Virus record (IMG/VR): IMGVR_UViG_3300032782_000001
Span: 308,404-372,403 of that record
Reading direction: 5' to 3' (one strand)
Source: a virus
Length of the DNA stretch: 64,000 bases
Each line of letters starts with the position of its first letter. Position 1 is the first letter of the stretch. The notes under the pieces are model-generated. The model did no database searches. It saw nothing but the letters and a program-made list of their open reading frames with translations, and was not told the DNA's origin. Positions 29,028-29,361 of this stretch are shown in pieces. The position numbers and the translations under genes were made by a program.

Positions 29028-29106
29028 CAGAGAGCACGTCCAACAAGCGGAACTCACAAGCTAGGATACAGCCAAAACCAGTTTCGCCACTCGGGCGCGC
29101 TCTCTG
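29028..29106 (+). ncRNA. Y-RNA-like module A (hairpin RNA)
   Basis: The outer helix is CAGAGAGC (29028-29035) with GCTCTCTG (29099-29106), continued after one A-C mismatch by CGTCC with GGGCG. A 5x5 internal loop follows (AACAA / CACTC), then a 7-bp helix GCGGAAC (29047-29053) with GTTTCGC (29081-29087). A 27-base apical region contains ACAAGC. Modules B and C have the same order of elements. Paired helices with different sequences but the same geometry argue for conserved structure. Bacterial and animal Y RNAs share a Ro60-binding double helix interrupted by a small loop; the match is inferred. Confidence 0.6.
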
Positions 29107-29112
29107 AATTCT

Positions 29113-29241
29113 GCCGGACATGAGGACTGGCGTCCTCGATTCCCCCATACGGAATTTTCCCGGTACCGCTCCTCGGTCCTGAAAGGGACCACCTAACGGT
29201 TCCTACAAGCAAGGAAGGTTCGATTCCTTCGTCCGGCTCCA
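29113..29241 (+). tRNA. tRNA-like RNA (CAU anticodon position) with Y-RNA-like hairpin in place of the variable arm; module B
   Basis: A complete cloverleaf can be drawn. The acceptor stem is GCCGGAC/GTCCGGC (7 perfect pairs) with T then an encoded CCA at 29239-29241. The D arm is GAGG/CCTC with loop ACTGGCGT. The anticodon arm is ATTCC/GGAAT with loop CCCATAC. The T arm is GAAGG/CCTTC with loop TTCGATT. Between the anticodon and T arms are 58 bases instead of 4-24. They fold into helix GGTACCG (29162-29168) with CGGTTCC (29197-29203), a 6x6 internal loop (CTCCTC / ACCTAA) and helix GGTCC/GGACC capped by TGAAAG, followed by TACAAGCAAG. Position 33 is C, not U, so decoding is doubtful. It looks like a tRNA fused to the same module as in A and C. 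Confidence 0.6.
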
Positions 29242-29361
29242 GAGCGTCCAGTTAGCGGTGCTTACAAGCAAGATGCTCCTAGGTGGAGCGTCGGATTCTG
29301 CATCCGAAGGGGCGGCTTCGAAAACCGCTCTTGCACAACCAGCATCGGCCCTCGGACGCTC
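29242..29361 (+). ncRNA. YrlA-like Y RNA candidate: Ro-type stem closing a tRNA-like domain; module C
   Basis: The outer helix is GAGCGTCC (29242-29249) with GGACGCTC (29354-29361). A 6x6 internal loop (AGTTAG / GCCCTC) follows, then helix CGGTGCT (29256-29262) with AGCATCG (29341-29347), an asymmetric loop containing ACAA, and GCAAGA (29268-29273) with TCTTGC (29329-29334). Inside lies a tRNA-like domain: D-arm-like GCTCC-TAGGT-GGAGC, anticodon-arm-like TCGGA-TTCTGCA-TCCGA, and a T-arm GCGG(C)-TTCGAAA-(A)CCGC with the T-loop signature TTCRA. Bacterial YrlA RNAs have this design, a Ro-binding stem attached to a tRNA mimic. The Ro60-like gene lies upstream on the same strand, which supports the reading. 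Confidence 0.65.

What the first reader, a model, noticed from the sequence alone, without database searches (positions are those of the whole stretch)
29028..29361. Three tandem RNA modules sharing one conserved architecture
Modules A, B and C all have outer helix, symmetric 5-6 base internal loop, 7-bp helix and then ACAAGC. Loop strands are AACAA/CACTC, ACCTAA/CTCCTC and AGTTAG/GCCCTC; helices are GCGGAAC/GTTTCGC, CGGTTCC/GGTACCG and CGGTGCT/AGCATCG. The helices differ in sequence but keep pairing, which is the mark of selection on RNA structure. The Y-RNA reading comes from the resemblance to Ro60-binding stems and from the nearby Ro60-like gene.
Basis: partly seen in the sequence, partly recalled or inferred. 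Interest (0 to 1): 0.9.

Follow-up and report, generated by a model that had tools for sequence, protein, structure and literature searches.

The report
Phage Y RNAs fused to tRNAs
A very large bacterial virus carries, next to a gene for a Ro60-like RNA-binding protein, a cluster of small RNA genes that join a Y-RNA-type protein-binding stem to whole tRNA shapes, and related viruses carry dozens more, pointing to an undescribed virus RNA-protein particle that displays mimics of tRNA.

Summary
Confirmed and extended. The three modules are real, structured RNAs lying between a promoter-like and a terminator-like site. Each contains one stem type: outer helix, symmetric 5-6 nt internal loop (one strand ending CUC), 7-8 bp helix, then NACAAGC.

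B (29113-29241) is a complete tRNA cloverleaf with encoded CCA and the stem inserted before the T arm. C (29242-29361) holds a native-order tRNA-like domain. A is a minimal Y-type hairpin.

A covariance model found 89 distinct B-type RNAs in related phages. 34 of 35 modelled pairs change on both sides; 91% of cells pair.

Of 21 phage records found by RNA pattern alone, 19 encode the Ro60-like protein, against 0 of 14 controls. Of 18 found by protein alone, 13 carry B-type RNAs.

The best Foldseek hits for that protein are Ro60/TROVE structures, although Pfam's TROVE model misses it. Bacterial Y RNAs read here beside TROVE genes share the stem layout.

Only 36 of 89 B-type RNAs keep a 7-nt anticodon loop with U33 (canonical tRNAs: 229/239), so most are unlikely to decode.

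Best guess: Ro60-bound tRNA decoys or mimics. Binding and expression are untested.

The parts
28982..29010 (+). sigma70-like promoter (TTGACA, 17 nt, TATTCT) just upstream of module A
   Evidence: the only promoter-like site in the region, 10 of 12 matches, 0.2 expected; reading
29028..29106 (+). Module A: minimal Y-type RNA; outer helix CAGAGAGC.CGTCC, 5x5 internal loop AACAA/CACTC, helix GCGGAACT/AGTTTCGC, then C ACAAGC and a short hairpin insert, no tRNA
   Evidence: z -6.55; A-type relatives in L006, L073, L228, L240
29113..29241 (+). Module B: complete tRNA cloverleaf with the Y stem inserted in the variable region and encoded 3' UCCA
   Evidence: CM R1 132.3 bits (a training sequence); 89 distinct relatives in phages; not called by ARAGORN
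29146..29148 (+). Anticodon position of B: CAU in loop CCCAUAC, with C instead of U at position 33
29162..29210 (+). Y (Ro60-type) stem inside B: inner helix 29162-29168 / 29197-29203, internal loop CTCCTC / ACCTAA, outer helix with GAAA loop 29175-29190, then T ACAAGC 29205-29210
29242..29361 (+). Module C: Y stem (outer GAGCGTCC/GGACGCTC, loop AGTTAG/GCCCTC, inner CGGTGCT/AGCATCG, TACAAGC) whose loop holds a native-order tRNA-like domain
   Evidence: z -3.4; C-type relatives in L208, L220, L231, L240, L018, L031, L052, L194
29268..29335 (+). tRNA-like domain of C (acceptor-like GCAAGA/TCTTGC, D arm, loop UUCUGCA with anticodon CUG, T loop TTCGAAA)
   Evidence: Rfam tRNA RF00005, 30.8 bits against a gathering score of 29
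29376..29408 (+). terminator-like 15-bp hairpin that closes the RNA cluster
23728..25593 (+). Ro60-like protein: N-terminal beta domain (about 29-93), helical repeats (about 97-417), vWA with DxSxS (418-590)
   Evidence: co-occurrence
27100..28978 (+). JAB peptidase, small ubiquitin-like ORF ending in Gly, unknown ORF and ThiF/E1-like protein immediately upstream of the RNA cluster; a ThiF-like gene lies just before the array in L004 (annotated) and, by the position of an alignable stretch, in L001-L003
   Evidence: functional link to the RNAs is inference

Best explanation
The cluster encodes the RNA part of a phage Ro60 ribonucleoprotein. Each RNA carries one Ro60-type (Y) binding stem. The rest is an exchangeable effector: a short hairpin (A), a whole tRNA with the Y stem in its variable region (B), a native-order tRNA-like domain inside the Y stem (C), or, elsewhere in the same genome, the circularly permuted tRNA domain known from bacterial YrlA. 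I propose that the phage Ro60-like protein binds the stem and keeps the RNA stable, while the tRNA-shaped part faces host enzymes that recognise tRNAs. The anticodons vary, U33 (needed for decoding) is often lost, and normal tRNAs of most of the same types are present. The most likely job is therefore that of a mimic or decoy for tRNA-targeting host enzymes, such as anticodon or variable-loop nucleases of anti-phage defence, rather than supply of codons. Shown here: the structures, covariation, co-occurrence with the Ro60-like protein, the fold match, and the anticodon-loop pattern. Inferred: expression, Ro60 binding, decoy action. My confidence is about 0.85 that these are Ro60-associated Y-type RNAs and about 0.4 in the decoy role.
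For: Identity: covariation in 89 distinct RNAs. Of 21 records found by RNA pattern, 19 have the protein, 0 of 14 controls do. Of 18 records found by protein, 13 have full-length B-type RNAs; controls have only three 75-91 nt canonical-tRNA-sized hits. Four of 4 GTDB genomes that hold a CM-confirmed B-type RNA also encode the protein, 0 of 2 chance-hit genomes do. Foldseek ranks 1-4 are TROVE 9kop (E 7e-8, 535 columns), phage phiLo Ro60 9l5y, and Ro60 with RNA 2i91. Bacterial Y RNAs beside TROVE genes have outer helix GGCGA, loop AUGCC/ACCCC, helix GGUGGAAC/GUUUCACC, then UACA, and the order T arm - acceptor hairpin - D arm. Phage permuted forms have the same order. Mechanism: U33 in a 7-nt loop in 36/89 against 229/239 canonical tRNAs of the loci of the first set, Fisher p 5e-27. 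Tyr-type loops are the largest class; 12 of 13 keep GUA but replace U33, giving CGGUAAA, CAGUAAA, CCGUAAA or ACGUAAA. Own-genome B-type RNAs duplicate canonical Met, Asn, Gly and Phe tRNAs. Literature: phage tRNAs counter tRNA-cleaving defences (PMC10264068, PMC11555353), Septu cuts the variable loop of tRNA-Tyr (PMC13096335), and YrlA was proposed as a competitive inhibitor of an anticodon nuclease (PMC7790460).
Against: No transcript, binding or phenotype data. Pfam TROVE matches none of 23 proteins at E 0.1. Whole-length TM to Ro60 is low (0.2-0.3) because the placing of the domains is uncertain. G054 (395 kb) and G048 (236 kb) have the protein but no B-type hit. U33 is retained in about half of the 7-nt loops, so some could still decode. 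CCA is encoded in 25 of 89, close to the canonical rate (74/239), so charging is not excluded. No host or defence system is known for this phage.
Confidence: 0.6

Rival explanations
1. Tether or gate model, as in bacterial RYPER: the tRNA-like part docks a nuclease or tRNA enzyme (PNPase, RNase P, modifying enzymes) onto the Ro60 ring, so that the particle processes or degrades host or phage RNA.
For: This is the known role of Ro60/Y RNA in Deinococcus, and YrlA is modified by DusA and TruB (PMC8394870). The elbow (T loop, D-loop GG) is the best kept part of the phage RNAs.
Against: It does not explain why many different anticodons are kept with U33 removed, nor why one phage needs about 8 variants.
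Confidence: 0.25
2. B-type RNAs are working tRNAs from whose variable region the Y stem is removed, or which tolerate it, and they supply codons or evade nucleases as active tRNAs.
For: Perfect acceptor and T arms, encoded CCA in 25 of 89, U33 kept in 36; phage tRNAs with altered anticodon loops that stay active are known (PMC10264068).
Against: U33 lost or loop altered in 53 of 89; short D loops of 3-6 nt in most; the inserted stem is itself under pair conservation; redundant with canonical tRNAs; linked to a Ro60-like gene.
Confidence: 0.12
3. The RNAs act with the neighbouring E1/JAB/ubiquitin-like genes, for example as scaffold or target selector for protein tagging.
For: The ThiF, JAB and Ubl-like genes lie directly upstream, and a ThiF-like gene precedes the array in L001-L004.
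Against: Other clusters sit in tRNA arrays far from these genes (G000 at 99 kb); no mechanism is known.
Confidence: 0.12
4. Decaying tRNA pseudogenes or chance folds.
For: Two of the first 55 lack an anticodon arm and nine have odd loop sizes.
Against: 34 of 35 pairs change on both sides and acceptor and T arms are 99% paired; conserved CUC and ACAAGC motifs; co-occurrence with Ro60.
Confidence: 0.01

Closest known systems
Bacterial Y RNAs (YrlA) of rsr operons
   Same: Same stem layout (outer helix, symmetric internal loop with a C/U-rich 3' strand, 7-8 bp helix, UACA), tRNA-like effector, partner Ro60 ortholog; the permuted phage form has the same arm order
   Different: B has free tRNA ends and the Y stem closed by a loop; C holds the tRNA in native order; phage RNAs keep a full anticodon arm; helix sequences vary and ACA is followed by AGC; many copies per genome
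Vertebrate Y RNAs
   Same: Ro60-type stem with a helix of about 7 bp
   Different: No Rfam match; no bulged C with a 3-nt bulge; no tRNA in vertebrate Y RNAs
Phage tRNAs that evade tRNA-cleaving defence (PMC10264068, PMC11555353)
   Same: Phage-encoded tRNA shapes with altered anticodon loops
   Different: Those are working tRNAs; here U33 is often lost and a Ro60-type stem is added
Ro60 of Thermus phage phiLo (PDB 9l5y)
   Same: A phage Ro60 protein; among the best fold matches
   Different: About 15% identity; whether phiLo has Y RNAs was not tested
tmRNA
   Same: A tRNA-like domain joined to another functional RNA
   Different: Here the addition is a Ro60-type stem in the variable region; no reading frame or pseudoknots

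Membership tests
Bacterial Y RNA (Yrl) | Stem of outer helix, internal loop, 7-8 bp helix, then UACA | tested here: met
   Phage. Bacterial RNAs beside TROVE genes in L298, L299, L300, L301. Comparison of layout by eye, no shared covariance model.
Bacterial Y RNA (Yrl) | Encoded with a Ro60 ortholog | tested here: met
   19 of 21 vs 0 of 14; 13 of 18 in reverse; 4 of 4 MAGs
Bacterial Y RNA (Yrl) | 5' and 3' ends pair to make the Ro60-binding stem | tested here: not met
   Met for A, C and permuted forms; not met for B, whose ends form a tRNA acceptor. B is therefore filed as a chimera, not a classical Y RNA.
Bacterial Y RNA (Yrl) | tRNA-like domain | tested here: met
   C: Rfam tRNA 30.8 bits; B: cloverleaf with covariation; A has none
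Bacterial Y RNA (Yrl) | Binds Ro60/Rsr | not testable with these tools
   Needs purified protein and RNA
Ro60 / TROVE protein | Match to Pfam TROVE PF05731 | tested here: not met
   No hit in the window protein or 22 relatives at E 0.1
Ro60 / TROVE protein | Helical-repeat ring plus vWA fold | tested here: inconclusive
   Foldseek ranks 1-4 are TROVE/Ro60 over 530-565 columns, E 7e-8 to 1e-5, but TM 0.2-0.3 and VIA lists only vWA rows
Ro60 / TROVE protein | MIDAS DxSxS in the vWA domain | tested here: met
   D426, S428, S430 invariant in 23 sequences
Decoding tRNA | 7-nt anticodon loop with U33 | tested here: not met
   Module B has C33; family 36 of 89, canonical 229 of 239
Decoding tRNA | Acceptor of 7 bp, T arm, NCCA | tested here: met
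   Window B has all; acceptor 99.2% and T arm 99.3% paired in the family; CCA encoded in 25 of 89

The most novel reading that the evidence does not exclude
A large group of jumbo phages makes a multi-RNA Ro60 particle that displays a panel of non-decoding tRNA mimics with different anticodons, each with a Ro60-type stem in its variable region, as a broad decoy against tRNA-cleaving immunity. It would be a new class of anti-defence RNA and a native-order circular permutant of YrlA.
Probability: 0.4. Interest if true: 0.95.

Novelty: new variant of a known kind. Interest (0 to 1): 0.87.

Why it matters
What Ro60 and Y RNAs are for in bacteria is a long-standing question, and YrlA's tRNA mimicry is unexplained. 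Here phages have multiplied and rearranged the module, put it into whole tRNAs of many types, and often removed the one base needed for decoding while keeping the anticodon. That makes the idea that Ro60/Y RNAs act against tRNA-targeting enzymes directly testable. It also shows that standard tRNA finders miss a whole RNA class in large phages: ARAGORN called none of the first 55.

Tried and rejected
Rfam at gathering thresholds over the window: nothing; at E up to 10 only tRNA (C) is above its cut-off, and the miRNA rows are chance. blastn of the RNA region against phages: only chance tRNA-arm pieces. PHROGs, PADLOC, PDB by sequence: only vWA for the Ro60-like protein. First AF2 model with 4 sequences was poor (pLDDT 66.8) and was replaced by a 23-sequence model (80.9). 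VIA-align lists were filled by vWA domains, so the helical part is barely tested there. MAFFT on diverse hybrids misaligns acceptors, so the model was built from six well-registered sequences with a hand-set structure. Genus Mycobacterium and class Gammaproteobacteria samples gave almost no TROVE genes; the Pseudomonadota sample gave eight genomes. A first scan for bacterial Y stems was too strict. The pseudogene and simple-tRNA readings were rejected on covariation and U33 data. Literature searches found no description of phage Y RNA/tRNA chimeras; only open-licence papers were searchable.

Full report
THE OBSERVATION. The window lies in a 436-kb phage record. The three modules lie in a stretch without an evident gene between a ThiF/E1-like gene (ends 28978) and a gene on the other strand (29415-29858). 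They are bracketed by the only promoter-like site of the region (28982-29010) and a 15-bp terminator-like hairpin (29376-29408). Folding is far better than in shuffles.

WHAT THE MODULES ARE. All three contain one element: outer helix, symmetric internal loop whose one strand ends in CUC, a 7-8 bp helix, then N-ACAAGC. What differs is what is attached. A (29028-29106) has a short hairpin insert. C (29242-29361) has, inside the stem's loop, a tRNA-like domain in normal arm order that Rfam's tRNA model recognises (30.8 bits). B (29113-29241) is the surprise. It is a whole tRNA: 7-bp acceptor GCCGGAC/GTCCGGC with UCCA, D arm with GG in its loop, anticodon arm with CAU, and T arm GAAGG-UUCGAUU-CCUUC. 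The Y-type stem is inserted between the anticodon arm and the T arm, its outer helix closed by GAAA. ARAGORN reports none of this.

A FAMILY IN LARGE PHAGES. The pattern ACAAGC-N(2-8)-GGTTCGANTCC led to many phage contigs, and parsing revealed the same chimera with different anticodons. A covariance model built from six of them found full-length copies in 22 of 25 records at E up to 1e-5 and 89 distinct copies over 43 loci. On these, 91.0% of cells pair, against 57.2% in shuffles and 37-58% when slid. 34 of 35 pairs show changes on both sides, and every helix of the Y stem and of the tRNA takes part. That alignment was fitted to the model. The anchor-based count in Python does not depend on pairing: inner helix 70.8% paired, 51.2% when strands are exchanged between RNAs, never above 57.1% in 10,000 exchanges. 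A stricter version with one RNA per phage agrees.

FOUR TOPOLOGIES. A separate anchored scan found 32 stems with free ends, against 3 in mononucleotide-shuffled sequence. Some of the 32 are spurious or double-counted (at least three of those called permuted are chance or neighbouring B-type strands). They fall into A-type, C-type and permuted RNAs. In the permuted ones the order is Y strand, ACAAGC, T arm, acceptor 3' strand, loop, acceptor 5' strand, D arm, anticodon arm, Y strand. The window's own genome has, in its tRNA array near 99-100 kb, five more B-type RNAs, one C-type and one permuted RNA. The named record Rctr197k (KX853510) carries an unannotated permuted one after its ThiF gene.

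LINK TO RO60. The protein at 23728-25593 has no Pfam TROVE match. With 23 relatives AlphaFold2 gives pLDDT 80.9, and the four best Foldseek hits in the PDB are TROVE 9kop, the two chains of the phage phiLo Ro60 9l5y, and Ro60 with RNA 2i91, over 530-565 columns. TM is low because the placing of the domains is uncertain. The link to the RNAs is statistical and works both ways. Of 21 records found by RNA pattern, 19 encode the protein, while 0 of 14 tRNA-bearing control records found by the same pattern do (hypergeometric p about 5e-8 by hand; two pairs of these records look near-identical, so the effective numbers are somewhat lower). Of 18 other records found by protein, 13 have full-length chimeras; controls have only three hits of 75-91 nt, the size of ordinary tRNAs. 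In GTDB genomes the chimera pattern gave 26 hits. Seven loci were confirmed by the model at E below 1e-5, all in MAG contigs. Four MAGs tested encode the protein too. These contigs may be phage DNA binned with bacteria; that was not checked.

COMPARISON WITH BACTERIAL Y RNAs. To test the Y-RNA reading beyond memory, I fetched DNA around TROVE genes of eight Pseudomonadota genomes. Several have tandem RNAs of the form outer helix GGCGA, loop AUGCC / ACCCC or ACUCU, helix GGUGGAA(C) / (G)UUUCACC, then UACA, with the order T arm, acceptor hairpin, D arm inside. The phage stem has the same layout. Module A (GCGGAAC...GTTTCGC CACTC) is close to it even in sequence. B is thus related to YrlA by circular permutation: the Y stem is closed and the acceptor is open. 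By the literature read here, YrlA has a terminal stem and mimics the D, T and acceptor arms (PMC8394870).

WHAT IT PROBABLY DOES. Canonical tRNAs in the loci of the first set have U33 in 229 of 239 cases. B-type RNAs have a 7-nt loop with U33 in only 36 of 89, though the parser favours U33. The largest class, GUA (Tyr), keeps the loop around GUA-A but has G, C or A at position 33 in 12 of 13. The own-genome chimeras duplicate ordinary Met, Asn, Gly and Phe tRNAs of the same phage. This argues against codon supply and for mimicry of tRNAs towards enzymes that read the anticodon arm or the tRNA body. Known precedents are phage tRNAs that defeat tRNA-cleaving defences (PMC10264068, PMC11555353), a defence nuclease that cuts the variable loop of tRNA-Tyr (PMC13096335), and the proposal that YrlA may competitively inhibit an anticodon nuclease (PMC7790460). 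The first three were seen as title and start of abstract only. The decoy role is inference. A RYPER-like tether is the main rival.

LIMITS. No expression or binding data. Virus records may be fragments. The E1/JAB/Ubl neighbourhood is noted, but its role is unknown. Novelty was checked only in open-licence papers.

Noticed in passing
window 25775-28978: Operon between the Ro60-like gene and the RNAs: S24/LexA-like peptidase, unknown protein, JAB peptidase, 89-aa ubiquitin-like ORF ending in PFG, unknown ORF, ThiF/E1-like protein. A ThiF-like gene also precedes the RNA array in L004 and, by position of an alignable stretch, in L001-L003.
   Followed up: partly
L160 2211-3114 and about 3388-3560 (G000:C1 99210-100560): Second cluster in the same phage: five B-type chimeras, one C-type and one permuted RNA inside an array of about 45 ordinary tRNAs.
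   Followed up: yes
L004 about 19490-19690 (KX853510.1, Rctr197k): A named phage record from a DAMO culture has an unannotated permuted Y RNA after its ThiF gene.
   Followed up: partly
window 21085-23400 (-): A second vWA protein (phrog_2426, unknown function) is encoded divergently next to the Ro60-like gene.
   Followed up: no
L298, L299, L300, L301: Tandem arrays of several bacterial Y RNAs beside TROVE genes in Pseudomonadota; in one (L300) several with different inserts.
   Followed up: partly
window 19641-20174: Collagen-like Gly-X-Y repeat protein.
   Followed up: no
window 29162-29203 and relatives: A pyrimidine-pyrimidine mismatch at position 3 or 4 of the 7-bp helix recurs across the family and may be part of protein recognition.
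   Followed up: no
L003 2824-2984 and 7833-7998: Pairs of neighbouring tRNAs of one type (Asn, Ile), the second with a longer variable region; in the Asn pair the second has lost U33.
   Followed up: no
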